A stretch of DNA of 64,000 nt from Oceanimonas sp. GK1 (lineage in GTDB: Bacteria > Pseudomonadota > Gammaproteobacteria > Enterobacterales > Aeromonadaceae), in assembly GCF_000243075.1 (NCBI RefSeq), contig NC_016745.1:1567001-1631000 (forward strand), read 5' to 3'. A model generated the notes under the pieces. The model had not been told where the DNA came from. It saw only the letters and a list, made by a program, of their open reading frames with translations, and searched no databases. Shown here piece after piece: positions 19,400 to 34,278 of the stretch. The position numbers and the translations under genes were made by a program. Position 1 is the first letter of the stretch. Each line of letters opens with the position of its first letter.

Positions 19400-19466
19400 G
19401 CCGTGCTTCCTTCCGGCTGAATTAGTGATCGGCTGGAATTCATTCATGTTATTTGGAGTAGACACA

Positions 19467-19736
19467 ATGTCACTAAATGCTGAAACCAAAGCCCAGATCG
19501 TTGCCGAATTCGCCCGTGGCGAAGGCGACACCGGCTCTCCCGAAGTGCAGGTAGCTCTGCTGAGCGCCCAGATCAACCACCTGCAGGGCCATTTCAAGCA
19601 GCACATCCATGATCACCACAGCCGTCGCGGCCTGCTGCGCATGGTATCCCAGCGTCGCAGCCTGCTGGACTACCTGAAGCGCAAGGACGTAGAGCGCTAT
19701 CGTGCCCTGATCGAAAAGCTGGGCCTGCGTCGTTAA
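19467..19736 (+). CDS. rpsO: 30S ribosomal protein S15
   Basis: An 89-residue 16S rRNA-binding primary assembly protein. ATG 19467 is preceded by TTGGAG; the open frame 23 codons upstream is not used by the family. The conserved [20 protein letters not shown] and [15 protein letters not shown] segments are present. In most gammaproteobacteria pnp follows within a few hundred bases; here about 9.8 kb intervene. Confidence 0.98.
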
Positions 19737-19755
19737 TCGACTCCAAAGCCTTGTT

Positions 19756-19783
19756 AAAAAGGGAGCTTCGGCTCCCTTTTTGT
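19756..19783 (+). terminator. Rho-independent terminator after rpsO
   Basis: AAAAAGGGAGC (19756-19766) pairs with GCTCCCTTTTT (19771-19781) around a TTCG tetraloop. It is a strong bidirectional-type terminator. The accessory insertion begins about 45 bp after it. Confidence 0.93.
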
Positions 19784-19826
19784 TTGCCTGTTCTGTAGGC
19801 CGGGGGTTATGCGCGGCAAATGCGAC

Positions 19827-19858
19827 CGAAATGTTGGGACTTGTCCCAACCTACCAAC
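19827..19858. repeat. 32-bp direct repeat, left copy, flanking the Wadjet operon
   Basis: Identical over 32 bases to 26682-26713. It contains a perfect 8-bp inverted repeat, GTTGGGAC (19833-19840) and GTCCCAAC (19843-19850), separated by TT. The rest of the segment to the jetA start (19859-20009) has no gene and no promoter that I can name with confidence. Confidence 0.9.
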
Positions 19859-20009
19859 TGTAAGTCAAGCAAGGCGGACTGTAGTAGCCAAGGCTGGGAG
19901 GAACAGCGCGAATCCCAGAATATTGAGCGCCCTTCACTGATTCACCTGCTGGATACCCCTGGCGACATGGAGTAGCCTGAAGCCACCTTACTGAGAGGCA
20001 GGGCTTTCC

Positions 20010-21509
20010 ATGGATGAAACGGCATTACAACGCACTCAGAAATATGTGTCTGCCCGCAGGCAAAATCCGGCCTGGGTGTTGCTGGCTTCGCGTCGAGCAC
20101 CGCTTATCCTGGGGTGTTTGAGTAGTCTGTTTGAACAGGCTGATGATGGTATCGCTGAAGAAGACGCTCTGCAGGCGCTTTCAAGCATGCTGGCTGAATA
20201 TGCAGTCCAGGATGAATATGAAATCGAACCGGATAATACCCGCCTGCAAGCCGGACGGGATCTGCGCGAATGGATTAAGCGTGGCCTGGTGATTGAACGT
20301 GCTCAACGCCTGTATGCAACAGATGCGCTGGGTGCTGCCATCCGCTTTATTGATTCACTCGATAACCGCATCATGACTTCCACTGCTTCGCGCCTTTCTG
20401 TGGTGCAGCGTGAAATTGAAAATCTTGAAATGGGTTTGAACCCAAACCCCGCCAGTCGTATTGCCTCCCTTGAATCCCGTATTCAGCAGTTGCAGCAAGA
20501 GCTGAAGGCCGCGCAATCCGGTGATATTCCTGTACTGAGTGAGGCGGAAGCCGTGGAGCGTATTCGTGAAGTGTATGGCCTGGCCACGGCGTTGCGCACC
20601 GATTTTCGCCGTGTCGAGGACTCCTGGCGCGAGGCGGACCGTAACTTGCGCCAGTCGATTATGTCGGAACAACTGCATCGTGGTGAGATTGTCGATCACC
20701 TTCTGGATGGTCAGGAGGCGCTGCTTCATACCGCCGAGGGCCGGGTGTTCGACAGTTTTCAGCAGCAGCTACGCCAAAGCAGTGAACTGGATCGAATGCG
20801 TGATCGCTTACGCCTGATCTTAAGCCACCCTTCAGCGAATAAAGCGCTTGAACCGAACCAAAGCAAAAACCTTCGCTGGTTGCCGTCTCGTTTGGTCAAA
20901 GAGAGTCAGGCTGTGCTCCAGGCGCGGGCGCGCAGTGAGCGGGATGTGAAAGGCTTCCTCAAAACCGGCCTGGCGGCAGAACATCACAGGGTTGGCCAGC
21001 TCTTGAATGAGATTATGAATCAGGCGCTGGAGCTGGACTGGCAGCCTCGCGCCAACCGCCGTGAGCCTGTACCTTTGCCACCTGTGGGCGTGGCGCTGGC
21101 GAAAACGCCATTGCCGGAGCGACTGCGTTTTAAAGCGATTGAAAATATCGATCAGCAAGCCCTGGATCTTTCTCGACATCGGGCTGATTTGAGTGATCTT
21201 GATGCGGAGTTCTGGGATGCGCTCAATGGCCTTGATCGTGAAACCCTGATCCGGGAGACGCTCCAGCTTCTTGCTGAGCAGGGTAAGCCTTTGACGCTGG
21301 TGGAAATTGCTCAACACCTGCCACCAGAACATGATCTGGAAACCTTCGCGCTCTGGTTGGGTATGGCCAGAGAAGCTGGTGTTGAGATAGATCTGAGTCA
21401 GCCGCAGGAGTTTGAAGTTTTGGATGAAGACCAGCGTCGCTGGCTGTTTTCATTGCCGTATCTGACGTTGAGTTCGCAGGACGTCAGCGATATCGACTGG
21501 GAGTTTTGA
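20010..21509 (+). CDS. jetA: Wadjet protein JetA (DUF3375; kleisin-type MksF)
   Basis: A 499-residue member of the DUF3375 family, the kleisin-like subunit of the Wadjet (JetABCD/MksBEFG) condensin-type system that restricts plasmids. It opens MDETALQRTQKYVSARRQNPAW. A winged-helix-like N-terminal region comes first, a coiled coil with Q/E-rich heptads covers about residues 125-185, and a second helical domain ends ...DVSDIDWEF. It is the first gene of a tight four-gene operon. GC is lower than in neighbouring housekeeping genes. The identification rests on family features and operon order. Confidence 0.88.
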   Translation: MDETALQRTQKYVSARRQNPAWVLLASRRAPLILGCLSSLFEQADDGIAEEDALQALSSMLAEYAVQDEYEIEPDNTRLQAGRDLREWIKRGLVIERAQRLYATDALGAAIRFIDSLDNRIMTSTASRLSVVQREIENLEMGLNPNPASRIASLESRIQQLQQELKAAQSGDIPVLSEAEAVERIREVYGLATALRTDFRRVEDSWREADRNLRQSIMSEQLHRGEIVDHLLDGQEALLHTAEGRVFDSFQQQLRQSSELDRMRDRLRLILSHPSANKALEPNQSKNLRWLPSRLVKESQAVLQARARSERDVKGFLKTGLAAEHHRVGQLLNEIMNQALELDWQPRANRREPVPLPPVGVALAKTPLPERLRFKAIENIDQQALDLSRHRADLSDLDAEFWDALNGLDRETLIRETLQLLAEQGKPLTLVEIAQHLPPEHDLETFALWLGMAREAGVEIDLSQPQEFEVLDEDQRRWLFSLPYLTLSSQDVSDIDWEF

Positions 21510-21511
21510 CC

Positions 21512-22237
21512 ATGAATGGAGTTTTTGACCGCATTACCCAGGCATTCGCTGACGAAGAACCTCAGGTCACGCCAGATGTTGAAGCGGCGGGTGAAAATGA
21601 ACTGCCAGACCAGCATCAAGAGTCAGAACGCACGCCTGCCCGGTTACGCGAAGTGTCTCAGGATCTGCTGCGCTTTGGCCTGCTCGAAGAGCGCCAGAAG
21701 CCGAATTTTTACAAGGTTGCTGTACGTGAACTGGATGAGCTGAACCGAATCCTTGAACCGCTGGATCTGTTTGCCGCTGTTGATGATGTTCGTGGTCTGG
21801 TGTTTCTTAAAGTGCTTAAGGCTGATGAGAACGCGGATGTTGAAGAGGAGTGGTCGCATCCCCTTGTGCGCAAGCAGCGTCTGAATCTGGAGCAATCGCT
21901 GTTGCTGGCCATTTTGCGCCAGTACTTTGTTGCCCATGAGCAGGAAGCGGGCACGGGTGCCACTCAGGCGTTGGTCGCGGTCGACGAGCTGATTCCGCAG
22001 ATGCAGGTTTATCTGGGTGATCAGGGCAGTGAATCACAGGAACGAAGCCGCATTTTAGAACTGCTCAACCAGCTTAAAGAACATGGTGTGGTGACGGCAC
22101 CAGATAAAGATGAACGGGTGATGATACGCCCGGTGATTGCGCATCTGGCAAACCCGGAAAACCTCACCGCTCTGCTGCACTGGCTGCGCGAGCGTGCTCA
22201 GAATGAGTGTGATACCCACAAGGAGCGGGAGCAATGA
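21512..22237 (+). CDS. jetB: Wadjet protein JetB (DUF4194; KITE-type MksE)
   Basis: A 241-residue DUF4194-family protein, the KITE subunit with tandem winged helices that bridges the JetA kleisin and DNA. The ATG at 21512 lies 2 nt after the jetA stop; a TTG at 21506 would overlap it. The N-terminus is acidic and probably disordered (about 1-45). A winged-helix core follows, with RLREVSQDLLRFGLLEERQKPNFY. The stop overlaps the jetC ATG (ATGA). Confidence 0.87.
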   Translation: MNGVFDRITQAFADEEPQVTPDVEAAGENELPDQHQESERTPARLREVSQDLLRFGLLEERQKPNFYKVAVRELDELNRILEPLDLFAAVDDVRGLVFLKVLKADENADVEEEWSHPLVRKQRLNLEQSLLLAILRQYFVAHEQEAGTGATQALVAVDELIPQMQVYLGDQGSESQERSRILELLNQLKEHGVVTAPDKDERVMIRPVIAHLANPENLTALLHWLRERAQNECDTHKEREQ

Positions 22238-25200
22238 ATCAGGCCGGACTCTGGCAGCAGGATGCCAGCTATAAACTGCAGACCCTTGAGCTGTTTAACT
22301 GGGGTGGTTTCGGTGGTCATCATACCGCCGATATTCATACTGAAGGCACTGCTGTGATAGGGCCGACCGGCAGTGGCAAAACCACCCTGGTGGATGCCCT
22401 GATGACGCTGTTGTGTACCAACCCCAGATACAATCTGGCCTCAACCGGTGGTCATGAGAGTGACCGGGATCTGGTCTCCTATGTGCGCGGTGTGTCTGGC
22501 CCCGGCGATGGCAGTGGTACCCAGTCGCATATCGCCCGCCCGGGCAAAACCGTCACGGGTATCGCAGCCAGTTTAAGCAACGGTGATGAACTGGTTCGCA
22601 TTGGCTTGTTGCTCTGGTTTGATGACACCAGCTCTGCCGTAGGAGATATGAAACGCCTGTTTTTCTTTGCCACCTCACCGGCACAAACACTTGAACACTG
22701 GCTGACGGTCCAGCATGAAGGCGGTATGCGGGCTCTGCGCCAGCTTGAGAAAACGCAAGCCGGACTTTGGAGTTATCAGACCAAAAAGGATTATCTGGTC
22801 CGGGTGCGCAGCTTCTTTGATGTGCGTGATAATGCCTTCAACCTGCTTAACCGCGCCGCTGGCTTGAAGCAGCTCAATAGTATTGATGAGATCTTTCGTG
22901 AGCTGGTGCTGGATGATACCTCGGCATTTGACCGTGCCCGTGAAGTTGCCGACAGTTTTGATGATCTCAGCGCTATTCATGAAGAGCTGGAAGTTGCCCG
23001 CCGCCAGCAGATCTCGCTTGAGCCGGTGAAAACTAACTGGCTTAAATATCAGGCCAATGCCGAAAAACTGACCGAGCAGCAGACATTGAGCCGGATTTTG
23101 CCTGTCTGGTTTGGTCTGCAGGCTGAACACCTTTGGCAGCAGGAGTGCCAGCGCCTGGCTCAGGACTGTGAAGCAGCAGAGTGCGCTAAAAACGAAGCGC
23201 AGCGCCAGCATGATCAGCAGGTGGAGCTTTGTGATGGTTTGAAAGAGCAATATCTGCAGCTGGGCGGTTCGGATATTGAGAGCCTGGAGAAATTAGTTAA
23301 AGCGACGCAAAAAGAGCTCGCGAATTGTGAGCGTGATGCCGGTGATTATCAGCGTTTAGCGCAGCAACTGGGTTTGTCTGATTCACTGGATAAAACCTCA
23401 TTTACACATAATCAGGCTCAACTGGCTGAGCAGCAGAAGATGCTTGGGGCTGAGGCTGAAAGTGCAGAGCAGGCTGTTTATACAGCAGGCGTCCAACATA
23501 TGCAGGCGTGTAACACTCTGCAGTCGCTGGAGCAGGAGCTAACCGAAGCAAGGCAGCGCCCCGGCTCCAATATTCGCAGTGAGTATCAGGTTTTTCGGGC
23601 AGCTCTGGCCGAAGAGCTGGATCTGGAGCCGGATCAGCTGCCTTTTGTGGCAGAGCTGGTGCAGGTAAAAGAGAGTGAACAGGCCTGGCGCGGGGCGATC
23701 GAGCGGGCAATTGGTGCCCACCGCCTGCGTATTCTGGTACCCCCGCACGCCATTAAACAGGCACTGCGCTGGGTGAATGCGCGTAATAACCGCCTGCATG
23801 TGCGCTTGCTCGAAGTGAAAGCGCCGGATGCGCCGATCCGTTTCTTTGATGATGGTTACACCCGCAAACTGGAGTATAAAAATCACCCCTACCGGGAAAC
23901 GGTTAAAGCCCTGCTGGCACGTCTGGACCGGCATTGCGTCGATGCCCCGGAGCAGCTGCGGCACACTGAGCACGCCATGACGCAACAGGGCTTGATGTCA
24001 TCCAAAGCGCGGGTGTTTGATAAGCAGGATCAAAAGCGCCTGCAGGATGACTGGCAGACCGGTTTTGATAACCGGGACCGCCTGGCGGCACTGGAGGCGC
24101 AGATTACTGAAGCCCGCCAGCAGCTTGGCCAGCTCCAGGCTCAACTTGAAAAGGCCAAAGCCGAGGCCCAGCAGCTCAATACCCGCCAACAGCTGATTAC
24201 ACAGCTGCAAACACTTAGCTTTGAGCAGATCGATCTTGGTCAGGTTCAGCATGATTTGGCGCAGCATCAGGCTAAACTGCAGCGGCTAACGTCACCCGAT
24301 TCCGATCTGGCCGCCGCTAAACAGGCACTGGATGCTGCCCAGCAAAGCCTGGCTGATCTGGCCGGGCAGGTGCAAACACTTACCGAAAACTACTTCAAGC
24401 TCAAACCACAACTCGATGCTGCAAAACGCGAACATGCCAGCGCCCAGCAAAGGGCTGCACAAGGCCTCAATGATGAACAGCGCCAAATCGCTGCGGCCCG
24501 TTTACCAACACTCGAGGCCAGTCAGCGGAATGAGCTGGATGAGATGGAACGCCGGGCCGCTCTGGCAGTGCAGCAAGCGTTGGATGCATATAAAGAGAAG
24601 CAAAGCCGGTTGGTGCAGGAGTTAGTGCGCTGCATGGCCAAAGCCAAACAGGAAGACCGGGGTGCACTGTCTGATGTGGGTACCGACCTGGACGATACCC
24701 GGCAGTACCTTGAACGCCTGCAGATCCTGGTGGAAGAAGCCCTGCCTGAGAAACGCCAGCGTTTTAAAGAGTATCTCAATCGCTCTTCTGATGAAGGCGT
24801 CACCCAGCTGCTCAGTCATATCGACAATGAAGTCGCCATGATTGAAGAGCGCCTTGAAGATGTAAATGCCACGCTGCGGCGCACTGATTTCCAGGCCGGT
24901 TGTTATCTGCAACTCGTTGCGTCCAAAGTGGTGCATGAAAGCCTGCGCAGCCTGAATACAGCCCAGAAACGCCTGGCCTCGGCGCGTTTTCAGGATGATG
25001 ACGGTGAAAGTCAGTACAAGGCTTTGCAAGCGATTGTTGAGCAGCTGCGCGATGCTTGTGAACGCCACCGTACTCAAGCCGCACGTGCGCTGCTTGATCC
25101 GCGTTTCCGCATTGAATTTCATGTTTCTGTCATCAAGCGCGCCACAGGCAAGACGCAGAGCACCTTTAAAGGTTCGCAAAGTGGCAGTGGCGGTGAGAAG

Positions 25201-25539
25201 GAGATTATCGCTTCCTATGTGCTGACCGCATCCCTGAGTTATGCACTGTGCCCGGATGGTGCCAGCCAGCCTCTGTTTGGCACCATAGTGCTGGATGAAG
25301 CCTTTTCGCGCAGCTCGCATACCGTGGCCGGGCGAATTATTGCCGCGCTCAAGGAGTTTGGGCTGCATGCGCTCTTCATTACACCAAACAAGGAGATGCG
25401 CCTGCTGCGTAACCATACCCGCTCTGCGATTGTGGTGCACAGGCGTGGCCTGGCTTCCAGCCTGATCACGCTGAGCTGGCAAGAGCTGGATGCGAAAAAG
25501 CCGCAGCGCACAGGTGCAACAGATGAAGTTACCCACTGA
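22234..25539 (+). CDS. jetC: Wadjet SMC-like ATPase JetC (MksB type)
   Basis: A 1101-residue SMC-like ATPase that drives DNA loop extrusion in the Wadjet complex. Walker A GPTGSGKT is at residues 43-50. The two halves of the ATPase head are separated by long coiled coils (about 280-440 and 600-830) around a hinge-like centre (about 450-590). The C-terminal head has a signature-like SGSGGEKEIIASY and Walker B TIVLDEAFSRSS, followed by LFITPNKEM. The gene overlaps jetB by 4 nt and jetD by 17 nt. It is intact, with no frameshift. Confidence 0.9.
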   Translation: MNQAGLWQQDASYKLQTLELFNWGGFGGHHTADIHTEGTAVIGPTGSGKTTLVDALMTLLCTNPRYNLASTGGHESDRDLVSYVRGVSGPGDGSGTQSHIARPGKTVTGIAASLSNGDELVRIGLLLWFDDTSSAVGDMKRLFFFATSPAQTLEHWLTVQHEGGMRALRQLEKTQAGLWSYQTKKDYLVRVRSFFDVRDNAFNLLNRAAGLKQLNSIDEIFRELVLDDTSAFDRAREVADSFDDLSAIHEELEVARRQQISLEPVKTNWLKYQANAEKLTEQQTLSRILPVWFGLQAEHLWQQECQRLAQDCEAAECAKNEAQRQHDQQVELCDGLKEQYLQLGGSDIESLEKLVKATQKELANCERDAGDYQRLAQQLGLSDSLDKTSFTHNQAQLAEQQKMLGAEAESAEQAVYTAGVQHMQACNTLQSLEQELTEARQRPGSNIRSEYQVFRAALAEELDLEPDQLPFVAELVQVKESEQAWRGAIERAIGAHRLRILVPPHAIKQALRWVNARNNRLHVRLLEVKAPDAPIRFFDDGYTRKLEYKNHPYRETVKALLARLDRHCVDAPEQLRHTEHAMTQQGLMSSKARVFDKQDQKRLQDDWQTGFDNRDRLAALEAQITEARQQLGQLQAQLEKAKAEAQQLNTRQQLITQLQTLSFEQIDLGQVQHDLAQHQAKLQRLTSPDSDLAAAKQALDAAQQSLADLAGQVQTLTENYFKLKPQLDAAKREHASAQQRAAQGLNDEQRQIAAARLPTLEASQRNELDEMERRAALAVQQALDAYKEKQSRLVQELVRCMAKAKQEDRGALSDVGTDLDDTRQYLERLQILVEEALPEKRQRFKEYLNRSSDEGVTQLLSHIDNEVAMIEERLEDVNATLRRTDFQAGCYLQLVASKVVHESLRSLNTAQKRLASARFQDDDGESQYKALQAIVEQLRDACERHRTQAARALLDPRFRIEFHVSVIKRATGKTQSTFKGSQSGSGGEKEIIASYVLTASLSYALCPDGASQPLFGTIVLDEAFSRSSHTVAGRIIAALKEFGLHALFITPNKEMRLLRNHTRSAIVVHRRGLASSLITLSWQELDAKKPQRTGATDEVTH

Positions 25540-26674
25540 TATTGCAGCACGGTTAGTCAAGCAGTGGCACCAAACCAGCCTTCGGCGTGAACGCTTGCTC
25601 TCAGCCGAGGCCTGGCCAATTGAGTTTGCGATCGGCAAGCCCTCAGCCAACATGTTTAGCGAGCAGCCGGGTAAGGTTCGTCGCCATCTTGAACATTGGC
25701 AGGCGGTGAATATCGGTGATGTTGAATGGCAGCCGGTCAAATATCGTAGTGCTGCAGAGCCGGTAGAGATGCCGGTTAGATGGCTGCTGCGTAATCCATC
25801 CCAATGGATAGCTGCCGCCGCTGATAAGGTGGTCGAGGGCGAATTTAAAACCCTCGAAAATTTAGTTGTACAGGTCAATCCACTTTATCGTGAGTTGCTG
25901 ATTACTGAACGCGGTTTATGGCGCAATAAGCCCACAGATGAGGTGATAGCAGCTGCCCAGTTGGCCGATTCTCTCGCACCTGGTTGCGCGCAGGGGCGTC
26001 CATTACGATTAATGGCGGGTCTGGCGGTGGATACCAAATTTATGGAGCGCCATGCTCGCCTGGTGATGCGCTTACTGGATATGCGCTATGCAGGTGAGGC
26101 CAGCGAGCAGGGACTGGAAAACTTTCTGGGTGCATCAAATGATAAAGAACACTGGCTGCTGGTGCTGGATCTCGACGGAAAACTACTGCCATTCAGGCGG
26201 ATGCGGTTAACAAGTCGTCAGCTGGCGAGTGCTGTTTTACCAGGCTCATGTTTGTTGGTTGTTGAAAATGAACAATGCGAGCATTTGTTACCACCAGTAC
26301 CTGATACCCTTGCCGTGCTGGGGGCAGGGCTGGATCTTGATTGGCTGGCGAACCCTGCTTTTCAGCACAAAAAATTGGCTTATTGGGGAGATCTGGACTC
26401 CTGGGGCTTACTGATGCTCTCGAATGCGCGCAAGTGCGCGCCGCACCTTGTGCCTTTGCTGATGAATGAGGAAATATTTAATCAGTTAGCAGAGGGCAGT
26501 GCCGTGGTTGAGCCGGTGAGCGCACAGCCGGTAACGCCTGCAGCCCTGAACAGTGAAGAAGCCCGTTTATATGAGACTTTGATCAAGGCTCCCAGAGGCC
26601 GACTGGAGCAGGAATATCTGCCCGCTGAGATGGTAGAGCGGGCGGTACACCATTGGGCCTGTTTGTTTGGTTGA
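25523..26674 (+). CDS. jetD: Wadjet nuclease JetD (DUF3322/DUF2220, Toprim type; MksG)
   Basis: A 383-residue nuclease subunit that cuts plasmid DNA trapped by JetABC. The N-terminal arm is DUF3322-like. The C-terminal DUF2220 part is a Toprim fold related to topoisomerase VI A: VVENEQC gives Glu248, and YWGDLDSWG gives Asp290 and Asp292, the expected metal-binding set. All three are present, so it looks catalytically competent. The ATG at 25523 overlaps jetC by 17 nt. The 32-bp repeat starts 8 bp after the stop. Confidence 0.9.
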   Translation: MKLPTDIAARLVKQWHQTSLRRERLLSAEAWPIEFAIGKPSANMFSEQPGKVRRHLEHWQAVNIGDVEWQPVKYRSAAEPVEMPVRWLLRNPSQWIAAAADKVVEGEFKTLENLVVQVNPLYRELLITERGLWRNKPTDEVIAAAQLADSLAPGCAQGRPLRLMAGLAVDTKFMERHARLVMRLLDMRYAGEASEQGLENFLGASNDKEHWLLVLDLDGKLLPFRRMRLTSRQLASAVLPGSCLLVVENEQCEHLLPPVPDTLAVLGAGLDLDWLANPAFQHKKLAYWGDLDSWGLLMLSNARKCAPHLVPLLMNEEIFNQLAEGSAVVEPVSAQPVTPAALNSEEARLYETLIKAPRGRLEQEYLPAEMVERAVHHWACLFG

Positions 26675-26681
26675 TAATGGT

Positions 26682-26713
26682 CGAAATGTTGGGACTTGTC
26701 CCAACCTACCAAC
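26682..26713. repeat. 32-bp direct repeat, right copy, flanking the Wadjet operon
   Basis: Identical to 19827-19858 and in the same orientation, with the same internal palindrome (26688-26695 and 26698-26705). Together the copies bracket exactly jetABCD and its leader. Confidence 0.9.
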
Positions 26714-26746
26714 CTTGTCTTCATATCATGTTACGCAGAAGTATCA

Positions 26747-26793
26747 CGAAGCAGCAGTGGGGATTGCCGGAGCCGACCATAAAATGCCATGGA
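26747..26793. repeat. ERIC-like palindromic repeat, left half (interrupted by IS110)
   Basis: Matches the left half of the intact repeat at 45606-45720 (GAAGCAGCAGTGGGGATT, then the start of the central palindrome AAAATGCCATGGA). The matching right half is at 29360-29430, on the far side of the insertion sequence. Confidence 0.85.
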
Positions 26794-26879
26794 TGATGAG
26801 ATGGACACCTCTTGGGTAAGCGGCGTCGTAATGCGCCATATTTGGGTTGAAGCTCAAATAACCACAAAAGGTGTCCACT

Positions 26880-27389
26880 ATGAACATTACGCTCATTGGT
26901 CTCGATTTGGCAAAGAATGTGATTCAGATTTGTGGTGTTAATCAAGCTGGCAAGGCGGTATTCAATCGCAGCGTGACCCGTCACAAGGTACTGGAGCTGC
27001 TTAGTCAGTACCCTCAGGTGCCCATTGCGATGGAAGCCTGCAGCGGCTCCAATTACTGGGGCAGAGCCCTGCAGCAGCGGGGACATCAGGTGATGTTGCT
27101 GCCGCCCCAGCATGTGAAACCCTTCGTCAAGGGGAACAAGAACGACCGTAATGATGCCTTTGCTATCTGTGAGGCGGCACGGCGCCCCAACATGACGTTT
27201 GTACCGCCGCGCACGCTGGAGCAGACCGACATCAGCCTGGTACACCGGCTGCGAGAGCGCCGCATCGGCGAGCGAACCCGGTTGATTAATCAGTTACGGG
27301 GCTTGCTCAATGAGTACGGCATCGTTCTGGCTGGCGGTAAAGAGACGTTAAAGCAAGCCATGCCCTTGCTGTTGGAGGATGCTAAATAA
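26880..27389 (+). pseudogene. IS110-family transposase, N-terminal part
   Basis: The first about 169 residues (MNITLIGLDLAKN...MPLLLEDA) carry the RuvC-like DEDD residues: Asp9, Glu52, Asp89 and Asp92 (NKNDRND). The frame then runs into the inserted IS630 and stops. The start is ATG 26880; a GTG three codons upstream is in frame. Without its C-terminal domain this fragment is unlikely to transpose the element. Confidence 0.9.
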
Positions 27390-28509
27390 CTGATCCTAAT
27401 AGTGCTACATTTTGGCGATTCTATAACCACTGCCGGGAAAGGGTGAAAACGTGTCCATAAAGTGCCTGACTCGTTTCAGTAGTGACACCATGCTGTGGCA
27501 CTGGTGATTACGGGTCACCGTTTCATGCAGCTTGTGCCACAGCAGCTCTATCTTGTTTATCCAGGGTGAGTAAACCGGCTGGAAGATAAGGATGAACTTG
27601 GGGTTGTCTGCCAGCCAGCTTTGAACCAGCCGACTCTTGTGGATCACGTAGTTATCCAGGATCAGCGTGATGTTCCGGGCTCGTCGGTAGCGCCGCCGTA
27701 GCGTTTCTAGCAGCGAAATGAACAGGACCGAGTTCTTCTTATAGCCTGCAACGTACGTCACCTGACCCGTTGTCGCATGCAGGGCTCCGGCCAGGTAGTG
27801 CTTTTCATTGATACCCGGTGTCACGACTTTCTTTTGCTGGCCTCGACGCGTCCAGTCCGCTCCCAGCTTGGGGTTAAGATCGATATCAACCTCGTCGGCG
27901 TAAAGCACAGGATTATCCTGGCAGCAGTCTGCAAGTGCCTGTTTTACTTGCTCAACCTTGACGTCATAGTCCGGGTCCTTGATGCGCAAGGTAGGTACAA
28001 CACGACGCCAGACAATACCTTCACGCGGCAGCCAACGGCGAAGTGTAGAGGCTGCCATGTTGAGGCTCAACAAGCGATTGACCTCGATGGCAAATAACTC
28101 AGTAGACCAGCGGCTGCGCTGGTAACCCAGGTCTTGCGGTGAAAACTGAATCAGCACCTGAAGAACTCGAATAATATGTCGAATCGGCAAAGAAGGTGGC
28201 CGTCCTGGTCGCTGCGTACGTAACGCCTCAAGCCCGCCTTCGTGATACCAGTTGAGCCAACGGCCCAGTGTTGAGCGGGCGGCGCCGGTCAGCCGGTGAA
28301 TTTTCTTGAGCGTGCAGCCTTCGTAACGCAGCAGAATGGCCATGACTCGACGGGCATGCTGCTTGTCGCGCGTGGTCTGAATAATCTTGTGCATTCGGCG
28401 TCGCTCTGAGCGAGGCAGGGATGGTAAGATCGGCATGAACTCAGTCCTTTGGGTGTCGTTTTTGGTTTTGTTTGGCGACTGATCAGATCGCACAAACTGG
28501 ACTGAGTTC
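27387..28509 (-). mobile_element. IS630-family element inserted in the IS110 transposase (approximate ends)
   Basis: Placed by the transposase gene and by the points where the IS110 protein resumes. The two ends share an imperfect inverted repeat (inward ACTGATCC...GTGC on the left, ACTCAGTCC...GTGC on the right). A TA target duplication, usual for this family, is not evident on the right, so the ends are good only to a few bases. Confidence 0.7.
27405..28436 (-). CDS. IS630-family transposase
   Basis: A 343-residue intact DDE transposase from ATG 28436, preceded by AAAGGA. An N-terminal helix-turn-helix region (RVMAILLRYEGCTLKKIHRLTG) is followed by a catalytic domain with YADEVDIDLNP (first Asp), LILDNYVIHKS (second Asp) and SPWINKIELLWHKLH (Glu). 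No internal stop or frameshift is seen, so it may still be active. Confidence 0.92.
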   Translation of the reverse strand: MPILPSLPRSERRRMHKIIQTTRDKQHARRVMAILLRYEGCTLKKIHRLTGAARSTLGRWLNWYHEGGLEALRTQRPGRPPSLPIRHIIRVLQVLIQFSPQDLGYQRSRWSTELFAIEVNRLLSLNMAASTLRRWLPREGIVWRRVVPTLRIKDPDYDVKVEQVKQALADCCQDNPVLYADEVDIDLNPKLGADWTRRGQQKKVVTPGINEKHYLAGALHATTGQVTYVAGYKKNSVLFISLLETLRRRYRRARNITLILDNYVIHKSRLVQSWLADNPKFILIFQPVYSPWINKIELLWHKLHETVTRNHQCHSMVSLLKRVRHFMDTFSPFPGSGYRIAKM

Positions 28510-29056
28510 CCTTCCTTCAGTGATCTACTATTCGGAACAGCTATTTAGTAACGAACTGACGCCACGGGCTCGGACCTATTGTTGTGACATCCTGGAAGAA
28601 TGGCAGCAACTGGATGAGGCTATTCGGTGCCTGGATAAAGACATCGAACAGCAATGTCGCGATAACGAGGCCTGCGCCCGACTCACTGACATTCGAGGTG
28701 TAGGCGCGGTGACCGCGACCGCCATGGTCGCCTTTGTCGGCAACGGCAGTCAGTACCGCAATGCCCGGCACTTTTCTGCCAACCTGGGGCTGGTACCGAA
28801 AGAGCATTCCAGTGGCGGCAAACAAAAGCTGGGCAGTATCACCAAGCGTGGTAATGGGTACTTGCGCAAGCTGTTGATACAAGGTGCCTGGTCGATTATC
28901 CGGCACCTGAACAAGGCCACCGACCGGTTATCGCTGTGGGTCAAACAGCTGGCCGAGCGCAGAGGCAAGCAACGCGCTGCGGTGGCCACGGCCAACAAGC
29001 TGGCACGGATTATCTGGGTCATGCTGTTCAGGCAGGAGCACTATCGGGCAGCCTGA
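28505..29056 (+). pseudogene. IS110-family transposase, C-terminal part
   Basis: Continues the split transposase from SSLPSVIYYSEQLF to the stop at 29056. A coiled segment is followed by the Transposase_20-type domain (IRGVGAVTATAMVAFVG) and the HSSGGKQKLGSITKRGN motif with the catalytic Ser region. It has no start of its own. Confidence 0.88.
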
Positions 29057-29430: not shown

Positions 29431-29493
29431 TGACGATCGTGCGGCTTCCGGCCTGTTTTTTCCCGTCATTCTATCCTTTAAACCGGAATCAAG

Positions 29494-29499
29494 TATACT
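29494..29499 (+). promoter_or_regulatory. Possible -10 box of a pnp-proximal promoter
   Basis: TATACT lies 44 bp before the pnp start in the short stretch of native leader left between the insertion and pnp. No good -35 is visible. It is the best candidate for a promoter that still serves pnp after its separation from rpsO. Confidence 0.4.
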
Positions 29500-29543
29500 G
29501 TGCCGGCGTATTAAAGAATCAAACAGTTAAAGGAATCTACCAC

Positions 29544-31691
29544 GTGAATCCTATCGTTAAGACCTTCCAGTACGGTCAGCATACCGTTACCCTTGAAACC
29601 GGCGTGATTGCCCGTCAGGCCACTGCCGCCGTGATGGCCAGCATCGACGACACTTCCGTGCTGGTGAGTGTGGTCGGCAAGCGCGAAGCGGACGAAAGCC
29701 GCGACTTCTTTCCGCTGACCGTCAACTACCAGGAGCGTACCTACGCCGCCGGCCGTATTCCCGGCAGCTTCTTCAAGCGTGAAGGCCGCCCTACCGAAGG
29801 CGAAACACTGACCGCGCGTCTGATTGACCGTCCCATTCGTCCGCTGTTTCCCGATGGATTCAAAAACGAAGTGCAGGTGATTGCCACCGTCATGTCCGCC
29901 AATCCGGAAATTGCCCCGGACATCATTTCCATGCTGGGCACCTCTGCCGCCCTGGCCATCTCCGGCATTCCCTTTGCCGGCCCCATCGGCGCCGCCCGGG
30001 TGGGTTACATGAACGGTGAATACGTGCTGAACCCCAGCATCAGCGAGCTGAAAGACAGCCAGCTGGACCTGGTGGTGGCCGGTACCGCCGGTGCCGTATT
30101 GATGGTGGAATCCGAAGCCTCGGTACTGCCGGAAGAGGTCATGCTGGGCGCCGTCATGTATGGTCACGAGCAGCTGCAGACCGCTGTGAATGCCATCAAT
30201 GAATTTGCCGCCGAAGTGGGTACCCAGCCCTGGGACTGGCAGCCCAAGGCCGAAAACGAAGCCCTGAAAGCCAAGGTAGCCGAGCTGGCCTCTGCCGAGC
30301 TGGGCGAAGCCTACCGCATTACCGACAAGACCGCCCGCCGCGACGCCATCAGCGACATCAAGGCCAAGGTTCAGGCTGCCGTGCTGGAGCAGTCGCCGGA
30401 AGCGGAAATCAAGGAAATTCAGGAACTGCTGGGCAAGCTGGAAAAAACCATCGTCCGTGGCCGCGTGGTACGCGGTGAACCGCGCATCGACGGCCGTGAG
30501 CCCGACATGATCCGCGCCCTGAACGTGGCCACCGGCCTGCTGCCCCGTGCCCACGGCTCCGCCCTGTTCACCCGCGGCGAAACCCAGGCCCTGGTGGCCG
30601 CCACCCTGGGCACCGAGCGTGATGCTCAGCTGATTGACGAGCTGACCGGTGAGCGCGCCAACCGCTTTATGCTGCACTACAACTTCCCTCCCTACTGTGT
30701 GGGTGAGACCGGCATGGTCGGCAGCCCCAAGCGCCGGGAAATCGGTCACGGCCGTCTGGCCAAGCGCGGCGTGGCAGCGGTGATGCCGAGCCAGGAAGAA
30801 TTCCCGTACACCGTACGGGTGGTGTCCGAAATCACCGAGTCCAACGGCTCTTCCTCAATGGCCTCCGTGTGCGGCACTTCGCTGGCACTGATGGACGCCG
30901 GTGTGCCGATCAAGGCCTCTGTGGCCGGTATCGCCATGGGTCTGGTGAAGGAAGCAGAAGGCTTTGTGGTGCTGTCCGACATTCTGGGTGACGAAGATCA
31001 CCTGGGCGACATGGACTTCAAGGTGGCCGGTACCAGTGAGGGCGTGACCGCCCTGCAGATGGACATCAAGATCGAAGGCATCACCAAAGAAATCATGGAA
31101 GTGGCCCTGAAGCAGGCCCGCAACGCCCGTCTGCACATTCTGAAGGTGATGGACGAAGCCCTGCAGGCGCCCCGTGCCGACATTTCCGATTTCGCGCCGC
31201 GCATTCACACCATCAAGATCAACCCCGAGAAGATCCGTGATGTCATTGGCAAGGGCGGCGCCACCATTCGCGCCCTGACCGAAGAAACCGGCACCACCAT
31301 CGAGCTGGACGACGACGGCACCGTGAAAATCGCCGCCGTGGACGGTGAAGCCGCCAAACTGGCTATTCGTCGCATCGAGCAGCTGACCGCGGAAGTGGAA
31401 AGCGGCACCATTTATGAAGGTCAGGTGGTGCGTCTGGCCGACTTCGGCGCCTTCGTCAACATTCTGCCCGGCAAGGACGGTCTGGTGCACATCTCCCAGA
31501 TCACCGAAGAGCGGGTGAAGAATGTGTCCGATCACCTGAAAGTGGGTGACACCGTCAAGGTCAAGGTACTGGAAGTGGACCGTCAGGGCCGCATTCGCCT
31601 GTCCATCAAGGAAGCCAACAAGCCGGAAGAGGCCGAAGCCGCTCCTGCCGCCGAGGCGACCGAAGAAGCCAAGGCCGACAGCGCCGAATAA
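29544..31691 (+). CDS. pnp: Polyribonucleotide nucleotidyltransferase (PNPase)
   Basis: 3'-5' phosphorolytic exoribonuclease of the degradosome. The protein is 715 residues from a GTG at 29544, preceded by AAGGA at 29530-29534 with correct spacing. The frame stays open upstream to 29262, but that part crosses the insertion sequence and the repeat and is not homologous. Two RNase PH domains, a KH domain ([11 protein letters not shown]) and an S1 domain ([15 protein letters not shown]) are present. The acidic Ala/Glu tail is typical. Confidence 0.97.
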
Positions 31692-33135: not shown

Positions 33136-34278
33136 ATGCACAGCCCTCTTAAACTGGATATCGACCATTTTCTGGCTCACGACTGGCAGCGCCGGCCGCG
33201 TTTGTTCAAGGCGGCCCTGCCAGACTTTGACGATCCCTTAAGTCCCGACGAGCTGGCCGGCCTGGCCCTGGAAGCCCACATCGAATCGCGCCGAGTGTGG
33301 CGGGAGCAGGGGCACTGGCAGGCGGAAACCGGACCGTTTGAGTCTTACGATCACCTGGGTGAGTCCGACTGGACCCTGCTGGTGCAGGCAGTCAACCAGT
33401 GGCATCCGGGGGTGCAGGACCTGGCCGATCTGTTCCGCTTTATTCCCGGCTGGCGTTTTGACGACGTCATGGTGAGCTTTTCCACTCCGGGGGGCGGTGT
33501 CGGCCCTCATATCGATCAGTACGGGGTCTTTATCATTCAGGGCGCCGGCAGCCGCCGCTGGCGGGTAGGGGAGCGCCAAAGCCTGCGCGAATTCGCCGCC
33601 CACGGCGCCCTGCGCCACTGCGACGATTTCGAGGCGGTGATTGACGAGGTATTGCAGCCCGGCGACATGATCTACATTCCTCCCGGTTGCCCCCACGAAG
33701 GCTACGCCGAGACGCCGGCACTGAATTATTCCATCGGCTTTCGCGCTCCCGATGCCAAGGACTTGTTCTCCAGCTTTGCCGATCACCTGCTGGCCCACGT
33801 CGACCGCACCCGTCGGTTTGACGATGCCGGCATGGCCGCCACCCAGGCCCATGGACGACTCGATGACAGCGTGATGAGCCAGGTGAAAACCCTGATGCGT
33901 GAGCTGCTGGACGACGACGCCCGGCTGAACGACTGGTTTGGCGAAATGATCTCGGAAGCCAAACACGATCTCGACCTGGAAGCCGCCGAGCCCGCCTACA
34001 GCCTGGAAGAGCTGGTGTTGCGCCTGGATCACGGCGACCATCTCTACCGCCTGGGCGGTGTGCGCTGTTTTTACCACCAGGGCAGCGAGGAGGTGTTTTA
34101 TCTGGATGGCGATCGCCATCAGCTGGCCGAGCCCGATGCCGACGCCATCGCCCTGCTGTGCGATCAGGCCCGTATCTGCGGCCCGGAAGTGGCCTGCCTG
34201 AAAGAGCCCCGCAACCTGCTCGACTGCCTGCTGCCCCTGGTGAATCAGGGCTACTGGTACTTTGAGGAAGACGAGTAA
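33136..34278 (+). CDS. roxA: 50S ribosomal protein L16 arginine hydroxylase RoxA (YcfD)
   Basis: JmjC-type Fe(II)/2-oxoglutarate oxygenase that hydroxylates an Arg of ribosomal protein L16. The protein is 380 residues from ATG 33136 (MHSPLKLDIDHF). The metal triad is clear: His125 and Asp127 in GPHIDQYG and His187 in PPGCPHEGY, the same numbering as the E. coli enzyme. A C-terminal winged-helix part follows. The frame is open 11 codons upstream but ATG 33136 matches the family. Confidence 0.94.
   Translation: MHSPLKLDIDHFLAHDWQRRPRLFKAALPDFDDPLSPDELAGLALEAHIESRRVWREQGHWQAETGPFESYDHLGESDWTLLVQAVNQWHPGVQDLADLFRFIPGWRFDDVMVSFSTPGGGVGPHIDQYGVFIIQGAGSRRWRVGERQSLREFAAHGALRHCDDFEAVIDEVLQPGDMIYIPPGCPHEGYAETPALNYSIGFRAPDAKDLFSSFADHLLAHVDRTRRFDDAGMAATQAHGRLDDSVMSQVKTLMRELLDDDARLNDWFGEMISEAKHDLDLEAAEPAYSLEELVLRLDHGDHLYRLGGVRCFYHQGSEEVFYLDGDRHQLAEPDADAIALLCDQARICGPEVACLKEPRNLLDCLLPLVNQGYWYFEEDE

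What the first reader, a model, noticed from the sequence alone, without database searches (positions are those of the whole stretch)
19827..26713. Complete type I Wadjet (JetABCD) operon inserted between rpsO and pnp
Four overlapping genes match JetA (DUF3375), JetB (DUF4194), JetC (SMC-like ATPase) and JetD (Toprim nuclease). Both Walker motifs of JetC and the Glu248/Asp290/Asp292 set of JetD are intact. They split two genes that are adjacent in nearly all gammaproteobacteria. A 60-base sample of jetC is 50% G+C against 72% in a sample of ftsH. The operon probably blocks plasmid uptake in this strain. Wadjet is known; this location is the less usual part.
Basis: partly seen in the sequence, partly recalled or inferred. 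Interest (0 to 1): 0.75.

Follow-up and report, generated by a model that had tools for sequence, protein, structure and literature searches.

The report
Acquired Wadjet operon beside small plasmids
A complete anti-plasmid defence operon of a known kind sits between two housekeeping genes of a bacterium where its relatives have none, framed by two identical 32-base repeats, yet the same genome assembly also holds two small plasmid-like DNAs of the size this defence is reported to destroy.

Summary
jetABCD (20010-26674) is an intact type I Wadjet operon by profile and by close solved relatives of JetC and JetD. It is foreign: the rpsO-pnp gap is too short for it (153-1222 nt) in 22 of 22 congeners, its G+C is host-unlike, and its nearest full-length JetC is in Marinobacterium (68%), while the four other congeners with a JetC match are 25-26% identical. 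(2) A split IS110 with an IS630 inside lies between jetD and pnp. (3) The assembly has two more contigs, 8,462 and 4,245 nt, with plasmid genes. So 'probably blocks plasmid uptake in this strain' is not supported: the operon may be silent or the plasmids may tolerate it. Similar coexistence is already in print for 'F. caldus'.

The parts
19470..19736 (+). rpsO (ribosomal protein S15), left flank
   Evidence: Pfam Ribosomal_S15 3.4e-38; S15 leader RF00114 at 19409-19523
19827..19858 (+). left copy of the 32-nt direct repeat; on the - strand GTAG followed by GTTGGGAC-AA-GTCCCAAC (REP-like)
   Evidence: perfect pair with 26682-26713; hairpin as single-stranded DNA, z -2.7
20010..21509 (+). jetA (DUF3375), 499 aa
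   Evidence: PDLC00452 JetA1 5e-252; PF11855 5.2e-119
21512..22237 (+). jetB (DUF4194, MukE-like)
   Evidence: PDLC00480 JetB1 3.1e-102 (translated from the TTG at 21506); PF13835; ATG at 21512
22234..25539 (+). jetC (SMC-like ATPase), 1101 aa
   Evidence: PDLC00511 JetC1 E=0; solved JetC 8dk2, 8as8 E=0; Walker A at residue 43, Walker B at 1018
25523..26674 (+). jetD (DUF3322 + JetD_C, Toprim nuclease), 383 aa, E248/D290/D292
   Evidence: PDLC00532 JetD1 7.2e-175 (translated from 25490); 7til 7.2e-129 and 8q72 5.8e-128; start codon
26682..26713 (+). right copy of the 32-nt direct repeat, 7 nt after the jetD stop
   Evidence: hairpin, z -2.6
26744..26795 (+). dispersed-repeat segment next to the IS110; a like segment lies in the rpsO-pnp gap of congener G007
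   Evidence: score 65 against a shuffle maximum of 22 for G007; not above shuffles in the six other gaps tested; core at 22 places in G000 with up to 2 mismatches
26871..27389 (+). IS110 transposase, N-terminal part (DEDD_Tnp_IS110)
   Evidence: PF01548 7.7e-23
27405..28493 (-). IS630-family transposase inside the IS110
   Evidence: PF13358 DDE_3 1.4e-24; 71% DNA identity to the ten listed plasmid places, annotated ISAhy2
28472..29056 (+). IS110 transposase, C-terminal part (Transposase_20)
   Evidence: PF02371 2.8e-24
29458..29543 (+). conserved pnp upstream region (contains TATACTG), retained
   Evidence: aligned with congener gaps
29544..31691 (+). pnp, right flank (GTG start)
   Evidence: RNase_PH, PNPase, KH, S1; up to 97% identical to congeners

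Best explanation
A complete, protein-intact type I Wadjet operon was acquired horizontally and inserted just downstream of rpsO in one lineage of a genus that I infer to be Oceanisphaera. Shown: gene content, order and key residues; a gap too short for it in congeners; foreign base composition; nearest full-length JetC in another family; identical 32-nt REP-like repeats at its two edges; retained pnp upstream region. Inferred from published work on homologues: JetABC motors extrude a circular DNA until it is fully reeled in, then JetD cuts it, so that circles below roughly 50-100 kb are lost. Inferred and unproved: entry used the REP-like sequence, by recombination between a REP on an incoming circle and one at the site, or by REP transposase (RAYT) action. 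An IS110, itself entered by an IS630, lies beside it. Because two small plasmid-like contigs share the genome, the operon's activity in this strain is open; I think weak expression or plasmid tolerance the likeliest reasons.
For: Profiles; solved relatives; active residues. rpsO-pnp gap of 153-1222 nt in 22 of 22 congeners. JetC matches in 5 of 23 genus members, the four others only 25-26% identical. Window JetC groups with Marinobacterium litorale (68% identity, support 100/99), apart from the genus Wadjets. GC3 53-58% in jetA-D against 70-76% in rpsO, infB and pnp. Perfect 32-nt repeat, its only two exact copies in the genome. Left end of the insert confined to 19798-19827 by seven congener gaps; right end to 26713-26744 by one. 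Mechanism passages in PMC10586767.
Against: On the repeats' role: no integrase or RAYT found within the bracketed 6.9 kb; no REP seen in the gap of any of 22 congeners by the patterns used; the one Y1 transposase of the genome has no GTAG hairpin close by under my criteria, and two congeners that have the hairpin, G007 and G009, have no Y1 match at all; none of 57 related jet loci has the palindrome; identical REP pairs of 26, 35 and 32 nt occur in G013, G015 and G006. The right-hand boundary rests on one congener and on a dispersed repeat. On activity: no sigma-70-like promoter at 19700-20050; two small plasmid-like contigs coexist.
Confidence: 0.9

Rival explanations
1. The operon is a working Wadjet and the two small plasmids evade or tolerate it, through a plasmid-encoded factor, topology or copy number.
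For: Intact genes and active residues. C2 has Replicase, ParA, a TacA-like antitoxin with a GNAT protein and an integrase; C3 has MobV, a ParE/RelE-type toxin and a 227-aa protein without a Pfam match that matches 3 of 72,556 plasmid records, one annotated DUF6338. In 'F. caldus', type I Wadjet was detected in all strains and plasmids under 10 kb in over 50% of strains (PMC12375680, sections 19 and 20), so coexistence can be stable. In Bacillota it is rare: 2 of about 1,442 jetD-bearing strains, both judged doubtful (PMC12287153, section 17 and passages).
Against: I know of no anti-Wadjet gene to match; circularity of C2 and C3 not proved (no terminal overlap); no expression data.
Confidence: 0.3
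2. The operon is silent or nearly so: it arrived without a good promoter, behind what reads as the rpsO terminator, so the plasmids persist.
For: No sigma-70-like site at 19700-20050, best informal score 8 of 12; a hairpin followed by T's stands between rpsO and jetA at about 19756-19781 (read by eye); small plasmid-like contigs present.
Against: The consensus scan is insensitive: it also found none before pnp and did not list that hairpin as a terminator. All four reading frames are intact.
Confidence: 0.35
3. The two 32-nt repeats are unrelated to the insertion: ordinary REP elements behind two genes that happen to be identical.
For: REP-like elements of this form occur 1-10 times in 10 of 23 genus members, this genome included; identical pairs of 26-35 nt occur in three congeners (four genomes compared, this one included); REPs often lie just behind genes (PMC3733652 passages); 5 of 51 related jet loci have some flanking repeat, each a different sequence. 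My odds rose from 0.35.
Against: The only two exact copies in 3.5 Mb stand at the two edges of one foreign segment, in the same orientation.
Confidence: 0.45
4. The small contigs are not resident plasmids of this strain (contamination or mis-assembly).
For: No shared sequence with the chromosomal stretches tested (window and 17 other own loci); G+C 54-55%; C2's replicase is in none of the other 22 genus members.
Against: C3's relaxase is 71% identical to one on a 4,072-nt contig of a congener whose first 500 bases equal those of an annotated circular plasmid of Oceanisphaera sp. IT1-181; the genome's contamination value is 0.04.
Confidence: 0.12

Closest known systems
Type I Wadjet JetABCD (solved: PDB 8q72, 8as8, 8dk2, 7til; source strains E. 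coli GF4-3 and P. aeruginosa PA14, recalled in part)
   Same: Gene order A-B-C-D, four families, full-length matches, catalytic E248 and Walker motifs
   Different: Location between rpsO and pnp, bracketed by a 32-nt REP-like repeat, with two small plasmid-like contigs in the same genome
Wadjet of Marinobacterium litorale (L013)
   Same: Nearest full-length JetC found, 68% identity; jetA 77%. A 324-residue piece from an uncultured Oceanobacter (L067) is 72% identical and was left out of the tree
   Different: Other surroundings, no flanking direct repeat found
GTAG-tagged REP elements (PMC3733652, passages read)
   Same: GTAG next to a palindrome, located behind genes
   Different: Two exact copies in this genome rather than many; no cognate transposase shown next to them
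Other Wadjets of the genus (G004, G006, G010, G011)
   Same: JetC and JetD relatives present
   Different: JetC only 25-26% identical; elsewhere in those genomes; JetD_C of G004 matched in two overlapping pieces
'F. caldus' type I Wadjet with small plasmids (PMC12375680, sections 19 and 20 read)
   Same: Type I Wadjet in all strains and plasmids under 10 kb in over half of them
   Different: Wadjet there lies in or between ICE-like elements; no sequence comparison made here

Membership tests
Wadjet type I | JetA (DUF3375), JetB (DUF4194), JetC (SMC-like), JetD (DUF3322/JetD_C) in this order | tested here: met
Wadjet type I | Best profiles are subtype 1 for all four proteins | tested here: met
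   JetA1, JetB1, JetC1, JetD1 lead every list
Wadjet type I | Walker A and B in JetC; Toprim acidic residues in JetD | tested here: met
Wadjet type I | Cleaves small circular DNA and lowers plasmid transformation | not testable with these tools
   needs expression; coexisting small plasmid-like contigs caution against assuming it in this strain
GTAG-type REP element | GTAG tag beside a GC-rich palindrome of 20-40 nt, intergenic | tested here: met
GTAG-type REP element | Dispersed family in the genome | tested here: inconclusive
   2 exact copies, 3 by the loose pattern in this genome; 1-10 in 10 of 23 genus members, this one included
GTAG-type REP element | Associated REP tyrosine transposase | tested here: inconclusive
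   one Y1_Tnp gene in G000 at 2520082; no GTAG hairpin beside it by my criteria; G007 and G009 have the hairpin but no Y1 match
Integrase-borne genomic island | Integrase within the repeats | tested here: not met
   the long frames are jetA-D; seven antisense frames of 97-418 aa gave no Pfam match; shorter and other overlapping frames were not profiled

The most novel reading that the evidence does not exclude
The chromosome carries an active type I Wadjet, and the 8.5-kb and 4.2-kb plasmids of the same strain persist because they carry a means of escaping loop-extrusion-triggered cleavage; candidates are the small proteins without a family match on C2 and C3. Beside this, REP pairs could act as the ends of a movable defence cassette.
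Probability: 0.2. Interest if true: 0.72.

Novelty: new member of a known kind. Interest (0 to 1): 0.36.

Why it matters
Wadjet is reported to measure DNA circles and destroy the small ones. In surveyed Bacillota complete jetABCD and small plasmids almost never meet (PMC12287153), whereas in 'F. caldus' type I Wadjet and plasmids under 10 kb are both common (PMC12375680). A genome with an intact operon and two small plasmid-like DNAs, in a genus where a related small plasmid lives without Wadjet, is a tractable case in which 'silent defence' and 'plasmid evasion' can be told apart. The repeats at the insert edges give a lead, not yet more, on how a defence operon without its own integrase can enter an intergenic site.

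Tried and rejected
Repeat as the att site of an integrase: no integrase found within the repeats. Repeat as a high-copy element: two exact copies, and in 394 order genomes the exact hairpin is in 4, all of this genus. Repeat in viral contigs: 0 matches in one scan. A shared mobilisation repeat around Wadjets: 5 of 51 loci with both jetA and jetD have flanking repeats (L063 inverted), all different; the 6 of 57 loci without both genes were not tested. rpsO-pnp as a defence hotspot: the 11 larger gaps hold other genes by inspection of ORF lists only (not profile-searched); in the genus, gaps of 0.8-1.2 kb occur in 5 of 22, and two of them show a dioxygenase-like ORF by eye. RAYT next to its REP: not seen.

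Tree: one search contained four rows translated from the wrong strand and is not used for them; one search repeats it with 31 rows, 27 of the 54 valid rows (chosen by hand for spread) plus the four corrected ones. One search dropped four of 57 loci (L048, L051, L053, L067: short or with a stop).

Print: searches for Wadjet with Alcanivorax, with Oceanisphaera and with 'repetitive extragenic palindromic' gave 0 papers each; a search on rpsO/pnp with insertion terms gave nothing fitting in its listing. Searches on small plasmids and evasion gave 2 papers and 13, ten listed. Of these I saw passages and one section of PMC12287153, passages of PMC12904381, passages and two sections of PMC12375680, and the listing only of the rest. 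No claim that coexistence is new to print is made.

Full report
What is there. The region 20010-26674 encodes four proteins in order whose best PADLOC profiles are JetA1, JetB1, JetC1 and JetD1, matched over nearly their whole length with E-values of 3.1e-102 or better, and whose Pfam domains are those of Wadjet. JetC and JetD are close to the solved type I proteins: JetC to 8dk2 and 8as8 at E=0, JetD to 7til and 8q72 at about 1e-128. Numbered from the ATG at 25523, JetD has E248, D290 and D292, and E248 aligns with the residue mutated in 8q72; JetC has its Walker A and B motifs. The four reading frames are unbroken.

It is an insertion. The pnp search of the genus covered this genome and 22 congeners; all 22 have rpsO before pnp with gaps of 153-1222 nt. 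In an order sample of 119 genomes, 117 gave both genes: 88 lie within 1 kb, 11 others have same-strand gaps of 2.2-11.3 kb, this genome has 9.8 kb, 2 are far apart, and 15 are on different contigs or strands. The 11 larger gaps show other genes by inspection of ORF lists. No rpsO or pnp match lies in any of 57 related jet loci, with up to 10 kb of flank where the contig allowed. Of 61 relatives searched with JetC, this genome included, 8 match, one only marginally (E 6.5e-4); the four congeners among them are 25-26% identical. JetD_C is found in 6 of 23 genus members, weakly in G002. The window's JetC groups with that of Marinobacterium litorale at 68% identity; a 324-residue piece from an uncultured Oceanobacter is 72% identical but too short for the tree. 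GC3 is 53-58% in jetA-D against 70-76% in rpsO, infB and pnp. Together this is a horizontal acquisition, and rpsO-jet-pnp is not ancestral in the order.

The edges. On the - strand each copy is GTAG followed by an 8-nt palindrome arm, two loop bases and the second arm, the form of a REP element (PMC3733652, passages only). With up to two mismatches in the core, G000 has these two places and one further palindrome elsewhere. A looser REP pattern finds 3 in this genome and 1-10 in 10 of 23 genus members; the exact hairpin class occurs in 4 of 394 order genomes, all of this genus. Alignment to seven congener gaps ends homology on the rpsO side at or before 19798. On the right, one of the seven (G007) resumes it at 26744, in a segment that is itself a dispersed repeat; the other six gave nothing above shuffles there. 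So the insert's ends lie within about 30 nt of the repeats, on the right by one congener only. Against reading much into this, identical REP pairs also occur in G013 (26 nt), G015 (35 nt) and G006 (32 nt), and the two congeners G007 and G009 carry the hairpin without any Y1 transposase match. That the repeats took part in the insertion is an inference that I hold at about even odds.

What else lies there. Between the right repeat and pnp lie an IS110 and, inside it, an IS630 on the opposite strand. The IS110 is next to a dispersed repeat with 22 places in the genome, which the congener G007 also has in this gap. The order of these insertions relative to jet is not known. The pnp upstream region with its TATACTG is retained, which may explain why the split is tolerated (inference).

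Does it work here? Review passages state that JetABCD cleaves circular DNA, that circles above about 100 kb and linear DNA escape, and that Wadjet operons do coexist with circular plasmids of variable size in certain genomes (PMC10586767). This assembly has, besides the 3,514,537-nt chromosome, contigs of 8,462 and 4,245 nt. C2 carries a Replicase/PriCT protein, a ParA partition ATPase, a TacA-like antitoxin with a GNAT protein, and an integrase; C3 carries a MobV relaxase and a ParE/RelE-type toxin. C3 aligns at 71-86% in three pieces, about half of its length, with the annotated circular 4,072-nt plasmid pC of Oceanisphaera sp. IT1-181. Congener G014 has a 4,072-nt contig whose first 500 bases equal pC, and G014 has no JetC or JetD match. 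This places the window's genus as Oceanisphaera or its near kin (inference). The C2 replicase was found in none of the other 22 genus members. Circularity is not shown: no terminal overlap was found.

How unusual is that? A survey of about 1,442 Bacillota strains with jetD orthologues found two with all four jet genes and plasmids under 16 kb, both judged doubtful by its authors (PMC12287153, section 17 and passages). But in 'F. caldus' type I Wadjet was detected in all strains and plasmids under 10 kb in over 50% of strains (PMC12375680, sections 19 and 20), so such coexistence is already in print for another lineage. The present case is a second kind of example and a clean one to test, not a first.

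Verdict. Known system, new member, unusual address; one coexistence worth a test. Main weaknesses: no expression data, circularity of the plasmid contigs unproved, a promoter scan so insensitive that it also found none before pnp, and an insertion mechanism that rests on position alone.

Noticed in passing
26871-29056: IS110-family transposase split by an IS630-family transposase on the opposite strand, beside a dispersed repeat of the genome.
   Followed up: partly
L176 and L177 (G000 contigs 2 and 3): Two plasmid-like contigs, 8,462 and 4,245 nt, in the assembly of a Wadjet bearer.
   Followed up: partly
L017, 4745-5083 and 12091-12389: jet operon of Alcanivorax sp. S71-1-4 is flanked by a direct repeat of 342 alignment columns, 76% identical.
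   Followed up: no
L020, 427-467 and 7757-7797: jet operon of Pseudomonas sp. A-1 is flanked by a 41-nt repeat, 95% identical, that reads like a tRNA end by eye.
   Followed up: no
G004:C1:1940622-1941154: JetD_C of a congener is matched in two overlapping pieces, as if the frame were broken.
   Followed up: no
L078-L081, L083: rpsO-pnp gaps of 0.8-1.2 kb in five congeners; an ORF resembling a LigB-type dioxygenase (by eye) in L079 and L080.
   Followed up: no
G015:C30:494-523 and 34228-34257: Two identical REP-like elements in opposite orientation about 34 kb apart on one contig of a congener.
   Followed up: no
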